64,000 bases of DNA from contig NW_026570235.1 of NCBI RefSeq assembly GCF_019649055.1, forward strand, positions 1,488,001-1,552,000, written 5' to 3'. This document shows positions 14,871 to 47,523 of the stretch, in pieces; position 1 is the stretch's first letter; every line of letters starts with the position of its first letter. Source of the DNA: Paramacrobiotus metropolitanus. Taxonomy: Eukaryota; Tardigrada; Eutardigrada; Parachela; Macrobiotidae. A program made the position numbers and the translations under genes. Under the pieces are notes generated by a model that was not told the DNA's origin, searched no databases, and saw nothing but the letters and a program-made list of their open reading frames with translations.

Positions 14871-16248
14871 ATGCAGCGGCCTCCGGTACCCATCGCACCC
14901 AGCGCGAATCCTTCCGCGACGCCTGTCGTCCCCGCCACAGCCACAACTGGACCCACACTCAACGGGACATTTCTGCCATCAACCTCGGCCATCAGGCCAC
15001 CGCTGCCGCCTCCCCCTGATCCGGGAATCGATATGGTACTGAATCACATCCAGGACATTCGCAGCAACATTTCGGGTCTTCTCCTGCACATCGAAACCCA
15101 GACGGATTACTTGTCTTGGTATGGAATGTGAAGTCTGCGATAGTCATTTGATCGTGCCAGCACAACACGAAACGTAGTGGGTTTGCTCTTTAACTAGGCC
15201 GAGCATCATGGACCGATTCAGTCTGATCTCCAGTCAGATGGCTAATCTGGCCAAAACGATGAAGAATGAGAAGAGTCCTGATCTGCGTAAAGCTGTCGTG
15301 GTTCCTAATTTCGTCACACAAGAGTCCGATGCAAATGTTGAAGTAAGCAAATCCTTTTCGAAGTCTGGAAATTCTCCCTTAATATCGTGAAATACGACTA
15401 GGAAAGTTCAGAAATACTTTTGTAAATTTTGAAGTTTCGTCTTCGGATTTTGTGTTCTTATACCTTCGTCTCATTATTTATTTTGCAGATTACTTTTTTA
15501 TGTTCCTTTCTTAATTCTTTAGAATTTGTAATTTGTTTTTATCATTTTTCCGGTTTTGATGATTTCGAGTAGGCTGTGGTTTTTTGTGGAACGAGTTTAA
15601 TTTGCACATTTTTAACAATTTCCGTTGAAGTATCCGAAATCTTGTGAAATTTTAATTTCTCCGATTATTCTCATGTTTTTGCAGAAATTGACGGAGGGCA
15701 GAATAACCAGTGTAAATCATGAGAATGTTCCGACGTACCTCCGAACGCGGCTCGATCCTGGATTGGAGGAGCGTTTTGATTTGGCCTTCAACAAAGTTCC
15801 TCCCGGAAATACGGAGATTGCTCAAAAGGCTGACAAGCAGATACAGCAGCTGAACAAAATTGTGTCTTCCTTGATTGATCACGTGGAGCAAAATAGAGCG
15901 GAAGAGACGAAAACAGGTGAAAACGATAATGAAAAAACTGTAAACCGAATTTCGCATTTGGTGTATTATGCACAGTGTTCTAATTATGTTTACTTATTGT
16001 CGAAGGGTATCCTACTGTAGTCGCTGGGCTGCATTGAATAATTTCGTCTATCGACTGTTTTAATATTTTGTGTAGCCGGGAAGTCCGCCATGCCAGTGAC
16101 GTACAATTCGGAAGATACGCGCACTATTTTTGCCTCTGCTTTCACGGGGAAAGGGTTGTCCGCGATTTCCAGTTTTGGTGGTACAGGACGAACACAGCAG
16201 CAGGGACCGACGACAGGACCTGGATCGAAAGCGGTGGGACAGTCGTAA
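14871..16248 (+). CDS. MED8: Mediator complex subunit 8
   Basis: Four exons: 14871-15118, 15198-15342, 15685-15916, 16076-16248. The sum is 798 bases, 265 residues, all phases agreeing. MED8 is a head-module subunit of Mediator, linking transcription activators to RNA polymerase II in the nucleus. The family core is clear: a helical N-terminal segment (HIQDIRSNISGLLLHI), then YLSWPSIMDRFSLISSQM matching the LTWPSVLDSFALLSGQ region of animal MED8, then NEKSPDLRKAVVVPNF, the VPTYLRTRLDPGLEER block, a coiled segment (ADKQIQQLNKIVSSLIDHVEQN) and a C-terminal AFTGKGLSAISS like the AFGKGL motif. The length matches the family (about 260-270). An unusual Pro/Ala/Thr-rich stretch of about 50 residues precedes the core. 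It converges on glutamine synthetase. Confidence 0.9.
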
Positions 16249-17278: not shown

Positions 17279-20185
17279 CTATTCCACAGTCTGATCCAGG
17301 CAAGTAGTGCGAACGATAATTTCCGTTACAGAGTAAGGGTCACAGTTGGATGCCGGTCGACGATCTTCCAGATAACCGTGCCCATCTTCGGCAACCTGAC
17401 GCGGAATTCGGATGCTAAAAAAGACACCGGTAAATCACCAAGAATTTTTGCCAGTTTAAATACCACTCAATCAATTGCAAAGAAAATAAATGCAAATATA
17501 CTGTAATGAAAAATCTCGTTTTAAATGCTTTATGCAATGGAAACTTGTTGAGTTAATCCATAAATTTCGTGGCCCAACTATCCAGTATCTAACAATACCG
17601 TACCTGCATCCTCTGTTGGCTACACCCGCGGAAAAGTCATGGATGCTGGACGTTTCATGACGTCCAGTCAAGCGACGCTGATTGTCTTGGCCTCCTTTTG
17701 GGTCATAATTACGAATGTGATTAGCGTGGACTTTGCCCATCTTTTCAATGGCATCTTCAATGGCCTGCAAGCCTTTTCCTGGAGTTCGCATGGCTTTCGT
17801 GCTGAAATTCGTGTGAGCACCAGCACCATTCCAGTCGCCCGGCACCGGTTTCGGGTCGAAGGACACTACAACTCCGAAATCTTCCGCCACACGGTGCAAG
17901 ATGTATCGTGACATCCACAATTCATCTCCCTAAATACAACAGCTGGATTGAAACTTCTATCGAAACTATCGAAACTTTTGTGTCTTGGACACCGAAAAAC
18001 TTACCGCCGAAATACCTTCACAAGGTCCAATTTGGAATTCCCACTGAGCCGGCATTACCTCAGCGTTGGTGCCTGCAATTTTGATTCCAGCGTATAAACA
18101 AGCCCGGTAATGGGCTTCCATGATGTCACGGCCGTAGACTTTATCCGTTCCAACTGCGCAGTAGTACGGACCTAAAAATCTTCAAAATTTAATTGGTGCG
18201 CATACTCATAGCACCTGTTGCAGTAAGTACTGCTCTTGAATTGTTTAAACAGATCGCGAAGACGTTGTCCGGTTGGTAAAGTATACCTTGTGGTCCCGGA
18301 AATCCATTTTTGGGCCAACCGAACGGACGACCGTCAACGTCCAGAAGCGAGTATTCCTGCTCAATGCCAAACCATGGCTCAAAATCTTTAGCCTGAGTCA
18401 TCACTTCGGCACATGCTCGGCGCTTATTACTTTCTGTAAAAATAATAAGCTTATAATTTCCAGCTAACTAATTGTTTGTAACAGTTTTACGATCAAGTAT
18501 GTAGTACTAACTACTGCAGTACGTATAAACATTTGCGCACTGGAAGATCTAAGTCCAGTCTCTAGGCTTATCATAACAAAATACAACACATGCGCCAATT
18601 CAGTTTACTTACAAGAAGCAATACCGGCAATTACACAATTATCGTTAGCCAAACAAAGCCGCTTTGACTCTGTTTAACATCCTGCAGGTATTTTCATTAC
18701 ACACAATATTTTATTCTTTAGCGCAAATGGCTCTCCTGGGTCCAACGTCTAAAGTTTACCTGTTGGCTTTTTGTTGTATTTGTACGTTTCGCACAGCACG
18801 AGCTTGTTCTTGCCACCGGTGAATGGATCCGGGTACAATGCTACAGGGTGTAAATAGACGTCGCTGTTGCTTCCTTCGGCCTGGTAAGTACTTGAACCAT
18901 CGTAGTTCCAGATGGGAAGATCTAAACGTAAGATTACAACATGTGACAGACGGCCATAAAAGTCCCCTAAAACACCGCACCGGCACGAGCTCACCAGGGT
19001 AGCTGCACAGTGCACATTTAGCTGTAATAACGAGCATATAAAATACCTATCTAAAACTGATGCCCAGTTTTGCACGTTCACACGGGTTCTCTAATTTTTT
19101 ACAAAAGCTGCATGCAACCATTAATTAGGTACTTAACGATGCGGTTACAACCATTCAACAACACTTGAAGAAGGGCAAAATATGTGATTTACTGTTAAAT
19201 AAAGCAAAAGGCAATGTACACTGTTCGGTATGAGATTAATCAATAGCATTGCTGAATCACAAGGGCTACTAAATGCAGACAATAATTTATTTGGAGTGAG
19301 AATCACAGGCATTTCCCGCAAACATCCATTAGTTGCATGCCAGCATTTACCTTATCTTCTCTACCCTAGTGTTACGTAGTGTACTTGAAAATCCTTCTGC
19401 AGAATAATGAACTTCTTATATAGAATATATTACACTTCCTGTACTGCTTTCCGGAAAATGCACCAGAACCAGTCAAATTTTCAGAAACCACAAAACTCAT
19501 TTCTGCAAATTCCGAAAAACCTCGCCGAAACGGCTGTGATATGCCGTATGTTCTAATGACATTTTTTTACAGAAAAAGCACGCAAAAATCGAAATCCATA
19601 ATTACGTACATCATACCTTAGTAACCTTACTACCTTACCTTACATGTACGCGCATACTTGAATATTCCTTTTAAGTATTCTTTTTAAAAACTATGATCAC
19701 TATCGCTACATCAAACTTGTAATTGATATAGTATGTGAATGGAATTTCGATTATTCAACCAGCAGAAAAACAAATGTTGATTTTGCTCTGATGGTATAAA
19801 TATGATATATATTTATATATGGTGTAAAATTAACCGAATAACCATCGATCAGCTGTTTGTATCACATGCAGCCAAACGGCAGTTTCGTACACATGCACTG
19901 CAGTTGGTCCAATTTTAAACCTTGCTACTTTCAAACTGTTCTGTGTTTGAACCATCTTCAACGACCTTTCACAATTTCAATTTTCCATTCTACTGTCAAC
20001 TTTATTACACTACCTTCTGGGCTTTTCGGCTCTGAGTCCAGCGTCCTGGATTTACACCGCAGATTTTCATGGGTCCCGTCAATCCATATGTAACATGCAG
20101 TAACTTTGTCTCCTTGTGGCAAAGAGAGATAAGTGCTCAAAATAGCCTTATCGGTTTCGGCGGGTAATGAGCGGGAAGACGGCAT
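17279..20185 (-). CDS. GS: Glutamine synthetase
   Basis: Six exons, in gene order 20185-20014, 18921-18760, 18433-18287, 18171-18005, 17929-17604, 17414-17279. The sum is 1110 bases, 369 residues, with every phase matching. The enzyme joins ammonia to glutamate using ATP, usually as a decamer in eukaryotes. Visible family blocks: [19 protein letters not shown] (beta-grasp domain), [43 protein letters not shown] (metal-binding Glu residues), [81 protein letters not shown]-type segment near [17 protein letters not shown], and SIRIPR. The length is normal and no key residue is missing. The start is the ATG at 20183-20185. It is divergent from the melted gene. Confidence 0.95.
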
Positions 20186-34388: not shown

Positions 34389-35371
34389 GGGTTCGTCAAT
34401 ACTGACCCAGTTACATTTAACGTTGCGGTTCCCGAAAACTGTTCCTAGCCTAAAAGAATTCGGACCGGGTCCAAATTTCCGGACCGCCCGTATATTACTA
34501 CGGCGGGTTCGTCAATAATGACCCGGTTATGATTTACGTTACGGTTCCCCAAAACTGCTCCACCCGGGGCCGCTAAAAAACCGGGTCCAAATTTCCGGAC
34601 CCCCCGTATATTACTACGGCGGGTTCGTCAGTAATAACCTGGTTATAATTTACGGGTTCCCCAAAACTGCACCACCCCGGGCAGCTAAAAAAATCCGGAC
34701 CGGGTCCAAATTTCCGGACCCCCCGTATATTTCTACGGCGGGTTCGTCAAAATTGACCCGGTCATAATTTACGTTACGGTTCCCCAAAACAGCTCCACCC
34801 GGGGGCGCAAAAAAAATCCGGACCGGGTCCAAATTTCCGGACCGCCCGTATATTACTACGGCGGGTTCGTCAATAATGACCGGGTTATAATTTACGTTAC
34901 GGTTTCTCAAAACAGCTCCACCCGGGGGCGCAAAAAAAATCCGGACCGGGTTCAATTTTCCGGACCGCCCGTATATTACTACGGCGGGTTCGTCAATAAT
35001 GACCCGGTTATGATTTACGTTACGGTTCCCCAAAACTGCACCACCCGGGGCCGCTGAAAAAATCCGGACCGAGTCCAAATTTTCGGACCGCCCGTATATT
35101 ACTACGGCGGGTTCGTCAAAATTGACCCGGTTATAATTTACGTTACGGTTCCCCAAAACTGCTCCACCCGGGGCCGCTAAAAAAATCCAGACCGGGTCCA
35201 AATTTCCGGACCCCCGTATATTACTACGGCGGGTTCGTCAATAATGACCCGGTTATAGTTTACGTTACGGTTCCCCAAAATGCCACCACCCGACCCGGTC
35301 TACGCGTTTGCACTGGGTCCAAATTTACGGCCGAACAGACATTTCCCCATTGGGTCCGTCAATTATAACCC
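34389..35371 (+). repeat. Minisatellite, about 122-base unit, eight copies plus a decayed one
   Basis: The box gggttcgtca recurs at 34389, 34505, 34621, 34740, 34863, 34986, 35109 and 35231, with a variant at 35351. The spacing tightens from 116 to 123 bases. Each unit also holds tttacgttacggttcccc, a GC-rich cacccgggg segment and ccggaccgggtccaaattt. On the minus strand the 122-123-base units leave an open frame (34650-35201), but it has no splice or domain support and reads as translated repeat. Confidence 0.9.
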
Positions 35372-38266: not shown

Positions 38267-41200
38267 ATGTCGGAAAACACCAACCTGTGTGCCGGAAGCA
38301 TCAAACGTGTGAAGCTGATTAATTTTATGTGCCACTCGGAGCTTACTGTTGATTTTGGATCACAAGTGTCGTTTGTCACGGGGCATAATGGCAGCGGGAA
38401 GAGTGCGGTTCTCGCTGGAATCGTCGCTGGTTTCGGAGCGCGCGCAGGTTAGTTGGAGCTCTGCGGATTTCAGTTACTTAGTATTTACGTGTTGTCAGTT
38501 TGTTTATTATGTTTTATAAACGCATTGCACATTATTCTTTTTTTATAATAAAGTATTTTAAAGAAAATTTTGGCATAGAATTTATCAACATTTTCTTTGC
38601 TAGTTAAAAATTCAGAATGCCGTAGACAGTCAGATGTCTACTTCCCTAACGAAAATTATCACCTTCGAATTAACGATTTAATTTTCGAAGGATAATTTAC
38701 CGTCTACGGCATGGATAATATACGGCTGCTTAAGTTAATATACTTCTATGGTTGTTTAATATCCCTATGTATTGTTTAAGTTCGTGTTTTAAAACAGGAG
38801 CGACGGCCAGAGGAACCAAACTGGGGGATCTGATTAAACACGGACAACGGTTCGTGATTGAGCAATCTGGAACTTTTTTGCTTCCTTGGGCTTTCGCTGC
38901 CAGTTTTTTTTATTTTTAAACATTTCTGTAGCTCTGCTTCTGTAATAATTCACCTGCAAAATGCTGGAGCCGGACCGAAGCCCTTCGCACCAGACATTTA
39001 TGGGCATACTATTATTATCGAAAGAACCTTTCATTTGGATAAAAGTGGAGCGTATAAAATATGTTCGGCCTCAGGTATTCATGAGAAGTCTGTTATAAAT
39101 ATCTGCGAAAGGTGGCTCAGGATTCACACGTAGTGTTGCTTGAAAGTCGTTTGTTATTATCGACACTCGGCGTGATTCCTGTGTGTTTTATCGCATTTGT
39201 AGGAAAAGTGATATCCAAGAAGCGAGCAGATTTGGATGCCATACTCCAGCATTACAACATTCAGGTTGTATTTCGTTTTTGTGGAGGTAAACCAGATCGA
39301 GAACTTGTACCTTTTTCAGGTGAACAATCCTGTCTTCCTTATGAATCAAGACACCTGTCGAAGCTTCTTGAATTCCAAAACCGGGAAAGAATTGTATTCG
39401 GTACGATGGCTTTCACGCTCAGTTTTTGCTGTATGTGAAACACTACGTAAAATTTTTTTAGTTCTTCTACAAAGCGCCTTTGTTGGATGAAATGGAGGAA
39501 TCCGTACAAACCGTAGAAAGACAAGCCAGTGAAACAAAAATCACCGTAACTCAGAAAGAACAGGTGATGGTGGCTTTAAATTCGCTTTTGCCCAGGATCA
39601 TGTTTTTTTTATTTGACTCTTTTAGGAAATGGAGCCGATTCGAGCCGCTATTACGGAGTGGGAGGGAAAGTTGTCAAAATGCCATCGCCCTGAAGACCTG
39701 CAAACCAACATAAAAAAAGTGAAGGCGAAAATCAAAATCGGCCAGTATCAGATTTTGGAAAAACAGACTGCCAGTGCGAAATCATTACTGGCCACTGCTC
39801 AGTCGAACTTACAAACTCACGAAGCTTCTTTGCAAAAATCCCGGGATAGAATTCCGGAATTCAAAAACCAACTGGAAGAATTGAAAACTCGTCGGGAAGA
39901 GTTAACGCCCGCTATGCAGGAGTCACAGCAGATTTTGGATACCAATAAACCGCAAATGAAGCAGCTGAAAGAAACAACGCAGACCGCAAAGGTAATTCTT
40001 TTTTAATTTCCACAAAGCCCTTTTTTTCGTTTCTCTTTGTGGCTTTTGGCAGTTTGATGTATGTGCTTAACTTCAGTATTTATTGCCAGACTAAACTGGA
40101 AGATGCAAAGGCTGAACTGGCGGAAAAGAAGCGTAATTTGCGTACTTTTGAGACTGAGCTTCAGCGATCTAAACAGCGGTGCGTTGTATTCGTGTTTGCA
40201 AACTGCTTACGTTTTTGGTTTTCTGCCGGGCTTGATTTCGATTGCATCTATGTTTAGACAAGATCTGGACGATTTTGATCAAAAGAAGGCGGACCTGGAA
40301 TCCGAAATCAAACAGTTGAATGATAACTTAGGACAAGGACAATCTGAGCGGAAAACGATTTTCGATGAACGAATCGCGATTAATACCGAAGTGGGAAGAG
40401 CAAAAAATGCGCTGGATGAAAATACGTAAGTCGTAACAAAGTTTGAAATTGGAATGAAATCTGAAGTTTTACAATGTCACGTTTTAGGTCAGCACTGACA
40501 GCGCTGCAACGGCACGTTAGCGAGTTGGACCGTGAAATACAAAGTTTCACCACCACCGCTAATGACAGCTGGGGAATTCTGAAGAGAATGGATCCACGGA
40601 ATGATTTTGCTACAAAACAGAAGCAGTTGATGGACGGCCTTATGAAGCAGCCTGGGGTGTTGAAGGGAAAAATAATCGGGCCGTGTGGTACGTAAGCGAT
40701 GCAGTACTTCTGTATCTTCTGTAAATTTTTAGTTGGTGTTAATTGTATTACCATGAATTCTCCCCAGTGCTGGAATTGAATCTAAAGGACGATATATATG
40801 GCAAAGTGGTGGAGAAGGTCGTAGGACCTTATTTTCGTACATACTTAATTGAAGACGAAAGAGATCGGCAGCGTATCACTGAGGAATTCCGAAAAGTGCG
40901 TTTACCGGCGCCGCCGCTGGACTGCGTTGGCGGCGCATTTATGGTGAGAATTCCGGTTACGGCATGTGGTTTCCGATTTTAATCTTGTCTGTACATGTTT
41001 TCCGTTTGCAGACTTCAGAGATGCCTTTCGACGACGTAAGTTCCTGTTGGAATAATGAATAAATTACCTTTTATTTTTGTTTGGTTGAATTTCAGCAGCG
41101 TAAATCTAGAGTAGAGCTTGTGGCGTCTTTATTTTGGGGTTAAGTTTATGGGCTCTTATCGAAATGTTTTCTTTCAGGCTTGCCGTTCTGCGCATCCAAC

Positions 41201-43323
41201 CGTAGCGGATGTCGTTTCTTTCAAGCATCCTCACGTTAGAAACGTTATCCTTGACGCGTTAGGATTGCATCAGATTCTGGTAATGCCCACCACCGAGCTG
41301 GCTCGTCAGTATTACCGCAGTGGCCCGCGTGTGGCGGGATGTAGAATGGTAAGTTTGGATTAAAAAATAATAACTACACAAATGAGATCATCGCAAGGCG
41401 GTAAAATTTCGCTTTCAGGTTTACGATCTCCAGGCCAATCAGCACAGCGATCAAGATGGATACATGTTTGTTCCCAGTTCGGATTACGAAAATCGACTGC
41501 TCTGCAAGGATGTTGGTACCGAAATTGAGTAAGAATGTGGATATTTTACCGTTGGCACCTCTTAGTGACAGTGTTGATTTGATGGATAGTTCAAAAACTA
41601 TGCTGCGAAATCAGAAAAGTGCAGAACTGGAGGAAAGGAAGCGCAGACAGGCCGAATTGAGCGCAGAAGTGAAAAAGCGTGAGCGGGAATTAATGAATAA
41701 GACGCGTCAACTGAAGGAATATGATGACAACGATGCACGAAACCAGAACCGTTTAACAGCGTTGACGTAAGCGTTCTCACCAACAAAACCACCGGTTTTT
41801 AGCGTCATGGGGTTTTTGTAACAGCGTCGAATTGGAAGCGGTCAAAATCGCTCAGCCTACGGATATCCAAGTGATGTTGGATGAAGTGGAGGAACTGAAA
41901 CTCGCTGCTGAAGAAGCCGAAACACGTGTGACACAGCTCGAAGTCGAGCTGGAAACGGCCAAAGCCAGGGAGAACAAGGCCTCCGAGCGATTTCGAGAAA
42001 TGAAAAATACGGCGGAAGAAGAAGTTAAAGAACTTGATGAAATTGTGGTAAGAAACTGTTTTTAGGCATAAGCTGTAATCTCTCGAGACAGGATTTTGTT
42101 GCGGTAAAGGTCATGTTCACTGTATATACTCGTAGGGAAAGTATGAGAGGTTAGAGCGAAAGATTGAAGGCATGGAATCGGATATCAGAACTTCTCAAAG
42201 ACAATCAGCCAGCTTGGAAAAGATAATTGAAGAGAAAAAGCAACAAGTTGCTGCTGCTCTGCAGCTTCAAGAGGTATTGCTGTTCTACTTCAATGCATGT
42301 TGTAATTGTTATTTCAGTTTTTCGCTCTGCTTTCCCTGCGACCAACGCTAAGCATGTGGCAAAATCTGTCGAATAGTGAGTTTTTGTCTGCAGGATAAGA
42401 AACGGGAAACTCTGGAGTTTGGCATTCATGAACGGTACTTAAGCAAACAAGTGTCCAGTGAAGAAGAATTGGAAGGGGAACTGGCCAATCTGGAACAACT
42501 GCTGCGCAATGTGGACTCTAACGTCGAAAATTCCTACGATTATTGTGCTCAGAAACTGAAGGAGTTGAATGACAGTAAAGAAATTGTAGACCATCAGTTG
42601 CGTACTGCCACTAAAGCCGTTATTGTGAGTGGCGCTTTGTTATAAAAAAAGATTTCTGCACCCGCATTTGAGTTATCACGGTGTGTTTGTTCCACTAGTT
42701 GATGATGAAAAATGCCACACAGCGTCAGAAGAACTATGTTCTCGCAAGGCACAAAGCCAGTGGAGTCATCAAAGAGCTTTTTGCGAAAATAATGAGCGAA
42801 CGCGGTTTTGAAGGGGACATTGAACTCGATCACGAAGCAAGAAACCTGAAATTTCTGGTTAAACCGCACCCGGAATCTCAGTGTGTGGAATCTAATGTGA
42901 AATCTCTGTCCGGTGGTGAACGCTCCTTCACTATGGTCTCGTTTCTACTGGCGTTGTGGCAGTTAATTGAGATTCCTTTTCGAGTATTGGATGAATTCGA
43001 TGTTTTCATGGTACGTGGTCGGGTGGTACGGACCGTACGGTCATCACGCTTCGGTGATTACACGAGAAGTATATTTTAGGATATGCTCAACAGAGATTAT
43101 GCGATGCTTCGGCTTATTGATGCTGCAGTTAATTCCGGTCGGCAGTTTATTTTCCTGACTCCGCTTTCCTTTAGTCAAAGGTATGGAAGTTGATAGCGGT
43201 ATGAGGTACCCGTCTTAAATGCATGTATTTTGCAGTGTACTGGACACTTTCAAGGAGTCTAGCCAAGTTGAAGTTATTCGCATGCCAACCGTTGCGCGAC
43301 CGCCCGTCGGAGCTGGCGAATAG
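38267..43323 (+). CDS. SMC6: Structural maintenance of chromosomes protein 6
   Basis: Twenty-one exons: 38267-38447, 38798-38849, 38932-39074, 39203-39264, 39320-39400, 39462-39563, 39626-39991, 40090-40178, 40258-40425, 40488-40687, 40768-40943, 41012-41035, 41178-41348, 41419-41528, 41566-41766, 41825-42047, 42136-42273, 42394-42624, 42699-43010, 43080-43180, 43236-43323. The sum is 3219 bases, 1072 residues, all phases consistent. SMC6 pairs with SMC5 in the nuclear complex that handles recombination intermediates and stalled forks. Visible parts: KRVKLINFMCHSELTVDFG with Walker A GHNGSGKS (residues 39-46), NIQVNNPVFLMNQD, a long coiled coil, a hinge (HPTVADVVSF to HQILVM), a second coiled coil, the signature LSGGERSFTMVSF, Walker B VLDEFDVFMD and QFIFLTPLSF. 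The length is close to the usual 1090. Exon 12 has only 24 bases and the intron 41529-41565 only 37. Confidence 0.93.
38617..38712. mobile_element. Foldback (MITE-like) sequence in SMC6 intron 1
   Basis: Outer arms atgccgtagac and gtctacggcat are exact reverse complements at the two ends of a 96-base segment. Inner arms (aaattatcaccttcgaa and ttcgaaggataattt) also pair. There is no coding capacity. Confidence 0.6.
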
Positions 43324-44284: not shown

Positions 44285-47210
44285 ATGTTTCAACCTGAGA
44301 ACACGTTCAGGATTCTGGTCACATCGAACCTGCATATTGGGTACGCTGAGAGGGAACCCGAGCGTATGCAGGATGCAGTTAACACCCTACAGGAAATTTT
44401 ACGGACTGCCAAATCGCAGTCGGTGGATTTGATCCTCATAACTGGTGCGTGGCAAATAGCTGTAAAAGTGATGATTTCGTATTTCAGCTTCGGTGAACTC
44501 GGAGCAGATTGAATTGAATATTTTCGTTTTTTAACTTAAAATTGGTTTTTTGCAGGGGATTTGTTTAATGAATCAAACCCATCCAGATGGGCCGTGCACG
44601 CGACCATGAATGCGCTGCGCAACAACTGTTGGGGCAACGCACCCGTCAGTGTGGAGTGCCTGAACGACTGGTCTAAGCCCCAGAAAGACGGCAGTGTACT
44701 GTTGCACGCGCCCAACTTTCTCGATCCCAACATCAACGTGGAGATGCCTGTGCTGGCCATTAATGGGTTCAGCGATGATCTGTCGGGATTAGGGAATCTG
44801 TCGGAATTGGATGTTCTGGATCGAGCGGGCTTGATTGATTTCTGTGGAAAAGTCACGAGCTCTGGTAAATCGTGTTTCGCGAGAAGTAGAAATCAAAAAA
44901 TCAAAACGTTATAAATCAAAGCGTGTATTGTTGTAAACTAAAAGCAGGATAAACTTTATTTTATATTTAATGATATATTGTTTTATAATATTCCGTGTCG
45001 AATACTTGAGAACAAAATCTTCTAAGTTTTTTCTTTTACTGTACTATTTTTCTGTTTTCGCTCAGAATTTTATGTTGCGGACTTATTGTTTTTGTTAGTT
45101 GCTGAAGCCTTACAATTAGCAAGCGCACTTTGAAATTCAAAATGATTTTGCTGCAATTTTCAGTTGACTTAGTAAACACTTTGCGACTTGCGTTAACCTG
45201 TTCTTGACAAATATATCAACGGCTCTTTCGAACTCTAGAATTCTGATAATTGCTTATGGTTTATTGGAAATTAGATACATAATGCCGCGCATAAGTATCT
45301 GCGTGTACAAACTTTCTTTCTACAACAGTCTTCATTTTTGAAACTACTATTTGCTTTGTGATTACTGTTTTTGACTTCGCATTATTAACCTTGCTTCCTG
45401 GTGCCTCTAGACTCCGTGCACATTCCACCGCTTTTGCTGCGCAAGGGAGAATCTCTGCTCTGTTTGTACACTCTGGGGGCCGTTCGAGAGGAACTGTTGG
45501 AACGACTGATCAAGGAGAAAAACATCAGCTTCTCTCGACCGCTGGACAATGTCGAGGAGACGTGGTTTAATTTGTTTGCCGTACATCAGGATCGCGCCAT
45601 GAAGCGCAGCCAGAAGCCCACGGAACCCATTACCCGCATTATCGAACCCTGGATGGATCTGGTGATCTGTGGGCGGGAGCACGAAAGCCTGACGGAAATC
45701 CAACAGCATCCGCTCGGATTCCGCTATATCCAGCCGGGCAGTACCGTCCGGGTTAATCTCTCACCGGATGAAGTGCCGACCAAGCACGCACTCATTGTGG
45801 AGATCTGCGGGAAGCAGTCGCGTTTACAGGCTGTACCGTTGAAAACCGTTCGACCGATGATTCTGGAGCATTTGAGCTGGGAAGTGCCAGCCGCTGCTGG
45901 CGATCAGGAAGCAGGCACCTCGGAAAAAAGTTTAATTGAGACCGTAAAAACCGCGGTTAATACAGCCTTGGAGAAAGCTGGATTGGAGCGCGAAGGAAAT
46001 CCGCAGATGCCGTGGCCACCGGTTATGCAGATGAACGTGGAGATTACCGGAGAGTATTTTGTTAATCCCATCAAACTGGGTCAGGAATTTGCGGGAGTGG
46101 TGGCCAACCCGAAAAATATGTTCAAGATTGTGTTCAAAAAGGCGAAACATGTGAATGGATTGACAAATGGCACCACGGAACTGAATGGGACAGCGGAATT
46201 GAATGGTACACGCCATGGTGTATTGGAATCATTGCTTGATGTCGGGCCGCCGACAATTGATGGTGGGTGCTCTGCGAAGAAGCCTTTACTGCGGAATCGA
46301 AAATAATGTTTTTGTTGTAGATTTCTTTCTGCAAAATTTGCAACAGCAGGAAAAAGAGGGAGAATTTGGTGTTTTACACCCGAAAATCATGATGAAAGCT
46401 ATTGAGTTTCTTCTGGACAAAGTAAGTGTCTCTGTAATTATATTATTTTATTTCTAACGACTGGTGACAGCGAGCGATGCATATGTTGAGCAGAATTTGG
46501 ACGTTTAATGAAATCTCGTTGTATAGGACGACAAGCAAGCCATTCCTGATGCTTACGACTGGGAGAAAGGTCGCGTGCGCGAGTTTATCGTCGGAAAGGA
46601 AGGTATTAATCCCGATGAAGCCGCCGGCGATATGGCCCTCTACCATATCGAGCATCGATCTCAGGAGGAAGAGGATCAGTTTGTCTCCCATCATGCGGAA
46701 GTTCTTGCCCGCCCGCCGATCAAAATGACGGTAAAGAATACCAAGACATCTGGAAACGGCGCTATCCCAGCCATCAAACAAGAGCCTGTCTCACCCACTA
46801 TGCCAGGTCCTCTACCGACAGCCACGGCGGTACGCGGCCGCGGTCGTCCCAGGGGCCGTGGTGGTGTCGCGGCTGCCCCACCGGCGCGCGCGATTAAAGT
46901 AGAAAGTGACGATTCTATGGAAGCCGAGGTTGTGGAGATTCCTAGCACTCCGCTCCGCCGCAGTGGCCGTAGTTCAACCGCCCGCGGTCAGCCCATGTAC
47001 GACGGGATCGATGGGGAGGAGGATAATGCTTCGGATGGATCGGAGGAATTCCTGCCCAACAAATCCGCACGTACCAGCCGGAACCAGACGGCTGGAGGCA
47101 AGCCTGGTTTTGCCATCCGCGGAGGACGGGGAGGAGTGCCGGAAGAAATACCACAGCTGGCACCGGCGCCGCGGTGGTGTATGCGACATCTTACAATCCG
47201 CAGCCCGTGA
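44285..47210 (+). CDS. MRE11-like protein with degenerate nuclease site
   Basis: Five exons: 44285-44444, 44556-44864, 45411-46262, 46321-46421, 46527-47210, giving 701 residues. MRE11 is the nuclease subunit of the MRE11-RAD50-NBS1 break-repair complex. Homology runs through ENTFRILVTSNLHIGYAERE, LILITGDLFNESNPSR, the loop near residues 118-135, ETWFNLFAVHQDR, DLVICGREHES, YIQPGSTVRVNLSPDE (like FYISQPGSSVVTSLSPGEA) and FAGVVANPKNMFKIVF. But metal-site residues differ: the Asp of D-x-H is Asn15, the His after DLF is Asn58, the Asn-His pair of GNHDD is Phe125-Ser126, and the first His of HEH is Arg245. Retained are His17, Asp55, His215 and His247. The C-terminus is disordered with an AT-hook (RGRGRPRGRGG). 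It is probably not an active nuclease, though it could still bind partners. Coding potential seems to continue past this stop after frame changes. Likely a paralogue, not the sole MRE11. Confidence 0.82.
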
Positions 47211-47523
47211 AGACCGTCGTCTCGCCGTCGATCCGGGGCGGCCGGCGACCGTAGCGCCACCGCGGGCCATTGCGGTGGCGCCGCCGGCAATTCGTACGAT
47301 CAGTCCGCGTGGACGTGTAGCACCGCGCCCCGCCGTGCCCGTTACGGCGCCACCGGTCGCCGCGGCACCAAACAATGGCGTAGTATGGAGAATCGTCAGC
47401 ACCACGAATGTGCCCACGGCGACGGCGCAGACACCATCCACGAGGCCGATTATCGTGCAGGGTGTGAATACGATGACGAGTAGTCGAGGTCGCGGTCGTC
47501 CGCGAAAATCACTGGGATACTAG
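47160..47523 (+). other. Out-of-frame continuation of the MRE11-like C-terminus
   Basis: Past the in-frame stop at 47210 the sequence keeps coding character in other frames. About 47162-47250 reads as VVYATSYNPQPVKTVV in the second frame. About 47254-47523 then reads in the third frame and ends with a second AT-hook and a stop (SSRGRGRPRKSLGY). Each change equals the loss of one base. No intron of normal size fits. Either these are assembly errors in GC-rich DNA, or the gene truly ends at 47210 and this is decayed sequence. Confidence 0.5.

What the first reader, a model, noticed from the sequence alone, without database searches (positions are those of the whole stretch)
44285..46262. MRE11 homologue that has lost most of its nuclease metal site
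Seen: the overall MRE11 phosphodiesterase fold is kept in order, yet five family metal or catalytic positions are changed (Asn15 for Asp, Asn58 for His, Phe125 and Ser126 for Asn-His, Arg245 for His), while His17, Asp55, His215 and His247 remain. Known: human residues D20, H63, N128, H129 and H245 are needed for nuclease activity, and extra MRE11 copies are reported in tardigrades. Inferred: a catalytically dead paralogue that may scaffold RAD50/NBS1 or bind DNA ends, possibly with a stress-tolerance role.
Basis: partly seen in the sequence, partly recalled or inferred. Interest (0 to 1): 0.85.

Follow-up and report, generated by a model that had tools for sequence, protein, structure and literature searches.

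The report
Tardigrade MRE11 copy without nuclease site
Beside a normal copy of the DNA-break repair nuclease MRE11, this (probably tardigrade) genome carries a second, very diverged copy that has lost most of its cutting site but still looks able to fold and hold on to its partner RAD50, so it may bind or tether broken DNA without cutting it.

Summary
The gene at 44285 encodes an MRE11 homologue (TIGR00583 325 bits; best PDB hit E 4.7e-74). It keeps four of nine metal/catalytic residues; human, S. pombe, Chaetomium and this genome's canonical MRE11 on contig C28 keep nine. The genome has RAD50 exons; the MRE11 model finds only this gene and two near-identical canonical copies. Two of its four introns share column and phase with canonical introns, so it is no retrocopy. 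Synonymous sites are saturated against the canonical gene, yet amino acids are constrained and five exons read without a stop: a pseudogene is unlikely unless recent. Best reading: a nuclease-dead paralogue, a non-cutting RAD50-binding subunit. Extra tardigrade MRE11 copies are in print; I saw no mention of a lost active site. Against a neat story: active-site loss is not statistically selective (p=0.29), the duplication is undated, NBS1 was not found (weak searches), and expression and stress roles are untested.

The parts
44285..44444 (+). exon 1 (residues 1-53 plus first base of codon 54); Asn15 codon 44327-44329 in place of Asp, His17 kept
   Evidence: open frame, GT donor; alignment
44556..44864 (+). 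exon 2; Asp55 kept, Asn58 (44567-44569) for His, Asn-Gly-Phe125-Ser126 (Phe-Ser 44768-44773) for His-Gly-Asn-His; human D130 equivalent Asp127 kept
45411..46262 (+). exon 3; His215 kept, Arg245 (45674-45676) for His, His247 kept; most of the capping/DNA-binding domain PF04152 (protein residues 294-468, running on into exon 4)
   Evidence: in-frame splice; aligned to human chains and to the canonical paralogue
44865..45410 (+). intron 2, phase 1, same alignment column as the first intron of canonical MRE11
46422..46526 (+). intron 4, phase 0, same alignment column as the second intron of canonical MRE11
46903..47523 (+). alternative GC-rich open frame that could hold the true 3' end (ends SSRGRGRPRKSLGY) if a frame change or an unseen intron occurs near 47130; unresolved
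   Evidence: open frame; codon score slightly better than the exon-5 frame beyond 47127, but negative in each frame

Best explanation
The gene is a protein-coding, strongly diverged MRE11 paralogue whose two-manganese phosphodiesterase site is inactivated. Shown: homology over the nuclease, capping and RAD50-binding regions; replacement of five of nine metal/catalytic residues; a canonical MRE11 and RAD50 exons in the same genome; an open frame at saturated synonymous distance from the canonical copy. Recalled: N128 and H245 are two of the four ligands of one metal, D20 is a ligand of the other, and H63 and H129 are the catalytic histidines. Inferred: it still folds, dimerises (with itself or with canonical MRE11) and docks on the RAD50 coiled coils through its helix-loop-helix, giving a RAD50 complex that binds, tethers or signals at DNA ends while cutting little or not at all. 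A role in desiccation or radiation tolerance is speculation.
For: Residue map: 4 of 9 kept against 9 of 9 in each of the four reference MRE11s. TIGR00583 matched over model positions 1-404 of 405. RAD50-binding region: window-canonical identity 19/62 against canonical-human 20/64, while the nuclease domain is 107/282 against 141/281 and capping 27/95 against 42/98, so the excess divergence lies in the nuclease and capping parts (region limits set by me, small numbers, no test made). Asp127, equivalent of human D130, is kept; in human MRN, D130V abolishes ATM activation while H129N abolishes nuclease but activates ATM and binds DNA like wild type (PMC3642328 passages). RAD50 exons collinear on C11. 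Against the canonical gene pS=0.779 (random pairing 0.758) but pN=0.466 (random pairing 0.732, sd 0.012), 592 codon pairs; no stop. A DNA-sensing state of human MRN with auto-inhibited nuclease is described (PMC12446458 abstract and passages).
Against: Loss at the active site is not significantly greater than at other invariant columns (kept 4/9 against 68/106, Fisher p=0.29): the whole protein diverged fast (branch 1.44 against 0.83 substitutions per site for the canonical copy). RAD50 binding, dimerisation and DNA binding rest on sequence similarity alone; I made no model of the complex. No transcript evidence. No orthologue from another species, so constraint on the window lineage alone is not measured. 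The C-terminal frame is uncertain. The nuclease is essential in mouse (H129N embryos die early; PMC3642328), so a dead copy could not stand in for the canonical one.
Confidence: 0.55

Rival explanations
1. It is a nuclease-dead MRE11-derived protein that no longer works with RAD50: a neofunctionalised DNA- or protein-binding factor using the old fold and the basic GRG tail.
For: Capping domain strongly diverged (27/95 identity to canonical); the position of human F233, the NBS1 C-helix contact named in PMC12446458, is Ile here and Phe in canonical; tail carries an RGRGRPRGRGG stretch.
Against: The RAD50-binding helices are as similar to the canonical gene's as those are to human (19/62 and 20/64).
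Confidence: 0.2
2. It is a pseudogene, lately released from selection.
For: No expression data; active-site and other invariant residues are both lost; possible frame break in the tail near 47130.
Against: Five exons with GT/AG splice sites and no stop over 701 codons; under neutral substitution the first stop is expected after a median of 20 changes (0.0095 per site; 95th percentile 0.043), whereas the gene is at saturated synonymous distance from its paralogue. GC at third positions 0.58 against 0.34 in its introns.
Confidence: 0.12
3. It keeps some metal-dependent phosphoesterase activity, with one metal bound by His17, Asp55, His247 and possibly Asn15, and Arg245 in place of the second metal.
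For: Three of four ligands of one site are kept and the fourth is the conservative Asn (residues; the assignment of ligands to the two metals is recalled from P. furiosus Mre11).
Against: Both histidines recalled as catalytic (H63, H129) are gone; human MRN with H129N alone appeared completely nuclease-deficient in vitro (PMC3642328).
Confidence: 0.1
4. Sequencing or assembly artefact.
For: If the genome is the Paramacrobiotus TYO assembly, it was built from nanopore reads (PMC8277472 passages).
Against: The five changes amount to at least 8 substitutions without an indel, inside otherwise conserved, open exons; that assembly was polished with Illumina reads at 62x mean coverage.
Confidence: 0.02

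Closest known systems
Canonical eukaryotic MRE11 (human MRE11 9q9h/8bah, S. pombe Rad32 4fbw, Chaetomium Mre11 4yke/7zr1; TIGR00583)
   Same: Same order of phosphodiesterase and capping domains, RAD50-binding helices and GRG-rich tail; 129 (human), 142 (S. pombe) and 134 (Chaetomium) of 374 core columns identical
   Different: Five of nine metal/catalytic residues replaced; capping domain diverged; fast branch
Extra MRE11 copies in tardigrades (Ramazzottius four copies, PMC6797769; Macrobiotidae/Murrayidae duplication, PMC10799326 section 16)
   Same: Duplicated MRE11 in what is probably a macrobiotid tardigrade
   Different: The passages I read count copies and describe trees; none mentions MRE11 catalytic residues or loss of activity (12 of 18 places shown)
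Engineered nuclease-dead MRE11 (human/mouse H129N, yeast H125N)
   Same: Loss at the same histidine; nuclease dead in vitro while DNA binding and ATM activation remain (human H129N, PMC3642328 passages)
   Different: A single laboratory mutation, not a natural paralogue
Other natural pseudonucleases, such as inactive Dis3/RNase II family members in fungi (PMC8097288, start of abstract in the listing)
   Same: A nuclease family member turned non-catalytic
   Different: RNA-binding; a different enzyme family

Membership tests
MRE11 (eukaryotic) | Full-length similarity to the MRE11 family model | tested here: met
   TIGR00583 324.9 bits over model 1-404 of 405, below its equivalog cut-off 434.6 (canonical tardigrade copy 427.0, also below); PF04152 53.5 bits, cut-off 25
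MRE11 (eukaryotic) | Complete two-metal phosphodiesterase site (nine metal/catalytic residues) | tested here: not met
   4 of 9 kept
MRE11 (eukaryotic) | RAD50-binding helix-loop-helix after the capping domain | tested here: met
   by sequence only: exons 4-5 aligned to human and canonical copies, 19/62 identical to canonical, 14/64 to human; binding itself not tested
MRE11 (eukaryotic) | Dimerisation through the helices after motif II and after HGNHD | tested here: inconclusive
   8/20 and 8/17 identical to canonical (helix limits recalled); no dimer model was made
MRE11 (eukaryotic) | Mn-dependent nuclease activity | not testable with these tools
   needs purified protein
Tardigrade-lineage duplicate of canonical MRE11 | Sister to the canonical tardigrade copy in a tree | tested here: inconclusive
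   five taxa: AU p 0.41 for sister placement, 0.77 for a deeper placement; support 64 in the best tree
Tardigrade-lineage duplicate of canonical MRE11 | Shared intron positions | tested here: met
   2 of 4 window introns, matching both introns of the canonical gene, share column and phase; could also be an older shared inheritance
Pseudogene | Stops or frameshifts in the reading frame | tested here: not met
   none in 701 codons over five exons; the very tail is uncertain

The most novel reading that the evidence does not exclude
The animal makes two kinds of MRE11-RAD50 complex: one that cuts and a second, built with the pseudonuclease (alone or as a half-active heterodimer with canonical MRE11), that captures, holds and signals DNA ends without resecting them, a genetic separation of tethering from cutting that could help repair the many breaks left by drying or radiation.
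Probability: 0.25. Interest if true: 0.8.

Novelty: new variant of a known kind. Interest (0 to 1): 0.52.

Why it matters
Tardigrade MRE11 expansion has been read as a gain of repair ability (PMC6797769). If one of the copies cannot cut, copy counting misleads, and nature would have made the separation-of-function allele (end binding and signalling without nuclease) that laboratories built as H129N. It would give a direct test of whether non-cutting MRE11-RAD50 complexes protect broken chromosomes in a desiccation-tolerant animal.

Tried and rejected
Tested and not upheld: that the active site was lost selectively while the rest was kept. Other columns invariant in the four references are lost at 38/106 and the nine active-site columns at 5/9, Fisher p=0.29.

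Tried without result: placing the duplication (five-taxon tree, two placements not rejected); NBS1 in this genome (PF16508 and PF08599, no hit at E 1; nothing rang in the 14 controls, one archaeon below cut-off, so neither is informative); the RAD50 zinc hook (PF04423, no hit, rings in 3 of 14 controls; RAD50 exons are found with TIGR00606); relatives in viral contigs (none confirmed of 42 pattern matches) and in prokaryote genome contigs (none of 13). The collections on hand do not hold other tardigrade genomes that I know of, so dN/dS between species was not possible. The whole-genome searches score only the best candidates and stretches may read N, so absence of a fourth MRE11 is not proved.

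Papers: tardigrade+MRE11 listed 22 of 22; MRE11+pseudoenzyme 4 of 4; MRE11+paralog+inactive and similar 25 of 337; MRE11+nuclease-dead+heterodimer and similar 12 of 23; tardigrade+Mre11+active site and similar 2 of 2; pseudonuclease+DNA repair+paralog 1 of 1. No listed title or abstract start describes a natural pseudonuclease MRE11. Two further searches were for structures and for H129N. I saw passages found by term, not whole texts, of PMC6797769, PMC10799326 (plus its section 16), PMC6652013, PMC8277472, PMC12446458, PMC7407228, PMC11233135, PMC5531438, PMC13389832, PMC7260605 and PMC3642328. An identifier that I took for the 2016 Ramazzottius genome paper is not held.

Considered and rejected: retrocopy (shared introns); contaminant (the gene has introns and lies on a 1.76-Mb contig, downstream of SMC6 pieces; not tested further).

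Full report
WHAT IS THERE. The window is G000:C15:1488001-1552000 of a 169.8-Mb, 533-contig genome. Its size fits the Paramacrobiotus sp. TYO assembly (170.48 Mb, 684 scaffolds; PMC8277472 passages), so a macrobiotid tardigrade is likely, but this is inference from size, not an identification. On the + strand at 44285 lies a five-exon gene: 44285-44444, 44556-44864, 45411-46262, 46321-46421 and 46527-47210, with GT/AG at the four introns, reading 701 codons to the first stop.

IDENTITY. The spliced protein matches Mre11_DNA_bind (53.5 bits, residues 294-468) and Metallophos (25.5 bits, residues 8-76, cut-off 21.5) in Pfam. Its first 510 residues match TIGR00583 over model positions 1-404 of 405 (324.9 bits, cut-off 434.6; the canonical copy scores 427.0). 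It matches solved MRE11 chains from S. pombe (E 4.7e-74) and human (E 2.3e-73), the human alignment running to residue 588 and so through the RAD50-binding helices. A whole-genome PF00149 search at E 0.001 lists the canonical copies but not the window gene (exon by exon, 50 candidates scored), in keeping with a decayed metal site.

ACTIVE SITE. Against human numbering: D20->N15, H22=H17, D60=D55, H63->N58, N128->F125, H129->S126, H217=H215, H245->R245, H247=H247: 4 of 9 kept. Human (9q9h), S. pombe, Chaetomium and the canonical copy of this genome keep 9 of 9 each. The HGNHDD motif reads NGFSDD; the aspartate equal to human D130 is kept. Of the literature on these positions I read passages saying that H129N abolishes nuclease activity but leaves DNA binding and ATM activation, and that D130V abolishes exonuclease and ATM activation (PMC3642328). 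That MRE11 coordinates two manganese ions by seven conserved residues is in PMC7407228 (passages); the assignment of ligands to metal 1 and metal 2, and of H63 as catalytic, is recalled. The five codons differ from codons of the family residue by at least 8 substitutions in all.

THE REST OF THE GENOME. The MRE11 model (TIGR00583, E up to 0.1) gives eight matches at three loci: the window gene and two copies of a canonical MRE11 on C28 (PF04152 gives the same three). The two C28 copies are 97.9% identical over 5.85 kb, in opposite orientation about 97 kb apart; their exons differ by 12 synonymous and 2 non-synonymous changes and one single-base gap, so they may be a recent duplication or unmerged haplotypes. 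RAD50 matches lie in order on C11:514589-522440 (six matches, each alone below the whole-protein cut-off). Searches for NBS1 domains found nothing but had no informative positive control; PMC6652013 reports no NBS1 homologues in the tardigrades it examined (passages).

ORIGIN. Over 374 core columns the window protein shares 135 with the canonical copy, 129 with human and 142 with S. pombe, while canonical and human share 182. The tree gives the window gene a branch of 1.44 substitutions per site against 0.83 for the canonical copy; placement as sister of the canonical copy (AU p 0.41) and below human plus canonical (AU p 0.77) are both allowed; three other placements have AU p 0.019, 0.034 and 0.006, although the SH test rejects none of them. 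Both introns of the canonical gene share column and phase with introns 2 and 4 of the window gene. So the copy was not made from mRNA and is old or very fast; a long-branch effect is likely, and the date is open.

IS IT ALIVE? Synonymous differences against the canonical gene are at the level of random pairing (pS 0.779 against 0.758), non-synonymous ones are far below it (pN 0.466 against 0.732, sd 0.012; 592 aligned codon pairs, poorly aligned tails included), and under simulated neutral substitution a first stop comes after a median of 20 changes (95th percentile 90, i.e. 0.043 per site). The frame has thus been under selection for most of its history; a very recent death cannot be excluded. 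pS and pN sum over both lineages, so constraint on the window lineage alone is inferred from its open frame and its kept residues. The tail is the weak spot: beyond about 47127 no frame scores as clearly coding and another open frame runs to 47523.

WHAT IT MAY DO. The RAD50-binding helices are as close to the canonical ones as those are to human (19/62 and 20/64), while the nuclease (107/282 against 141/281) and capping domains (27/95 against 42/98) are relatively more diverged (region limits set by me from recalled domain borders). The numbers are small and were not tested, but they agree with a subunit that kept its RAD50 contact and lost its enzyme. Human MRN has a DNA-sensing state in which the nuclease is shielded (PMC12446458 abstract and passages), and nuclease-dead MRE11 still serves ATM activation (PMC3642328), so a non-cutting MRE11-RAD50 complex is mechanistically reasonable. 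Homodimer or heterodimer with canonical MRE11 is not decided. Against a tidy picture: the active site was not lost significantly more than other invariant columns (4/9 kept against 68/106, p=0.29).

NOVELTY. Extra MRE11 copies in tardigrades are known: four in Ramazzottius (PMC6797769; PMC5531438), and a shared macrobiotid/murrayid duplication with either a further Macrobiotidae-specific one or separate ones in Paramacrobiotus and Macrobiotus (PMC10799326 section 16). In the passages I saw none mentions MRE11 catalytic residues; the searches listed no title or abstract start on a natural pseudonuclease MRE11. Most subscription papers are not in the library, and supplements were not searched. 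I rate it a new variant of a known kind.

Noticed in passing
window 38306-43079: Pieces of an SMC6 gene (AAA_23 match at 38306-38440; an exon inside the open frame 42699-43079 best matches an SMC6 chain, E 5e-17) lie on the same strand; the last piece seen ends about 1.2 kb upstream of the MRE11 paralogue, and SMC6's own last exon may lie between.
   Followed up: partly
L005 and L006 (G000:C28:1281500-1287500 and 1184500-1190500): Two 97.9% identical copies of canonical MRE11 in opposite orientation, about 97 kb apart, one about 27 kb from the contig end; one carries a single-base gap in an exon. Recent duplication or unmerged haplotype.
   Followed up: partly
window 47127-47523: GC-rich open frame in another register from exon 5, ending in RGRGRPRK (AT-hook-like, by recall): possible true C-terminus, hidden intron or assembly indel.
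   Followed up: partly
window 15616-16017 (+) and 17474-17929 (-): Mediator subunit 8 exon (PF10232, 56 bits) and a glutamine synthetase match just below cut-off (23 bits, cut-off 24).
   Followed up: no
window 34650-35237 (-): Open frame made of a tandemly repeated unit of about 40 residues, with an open frame on the other strand too: probably a DNA tandem repeat rather than a gene.
   Followed up: no
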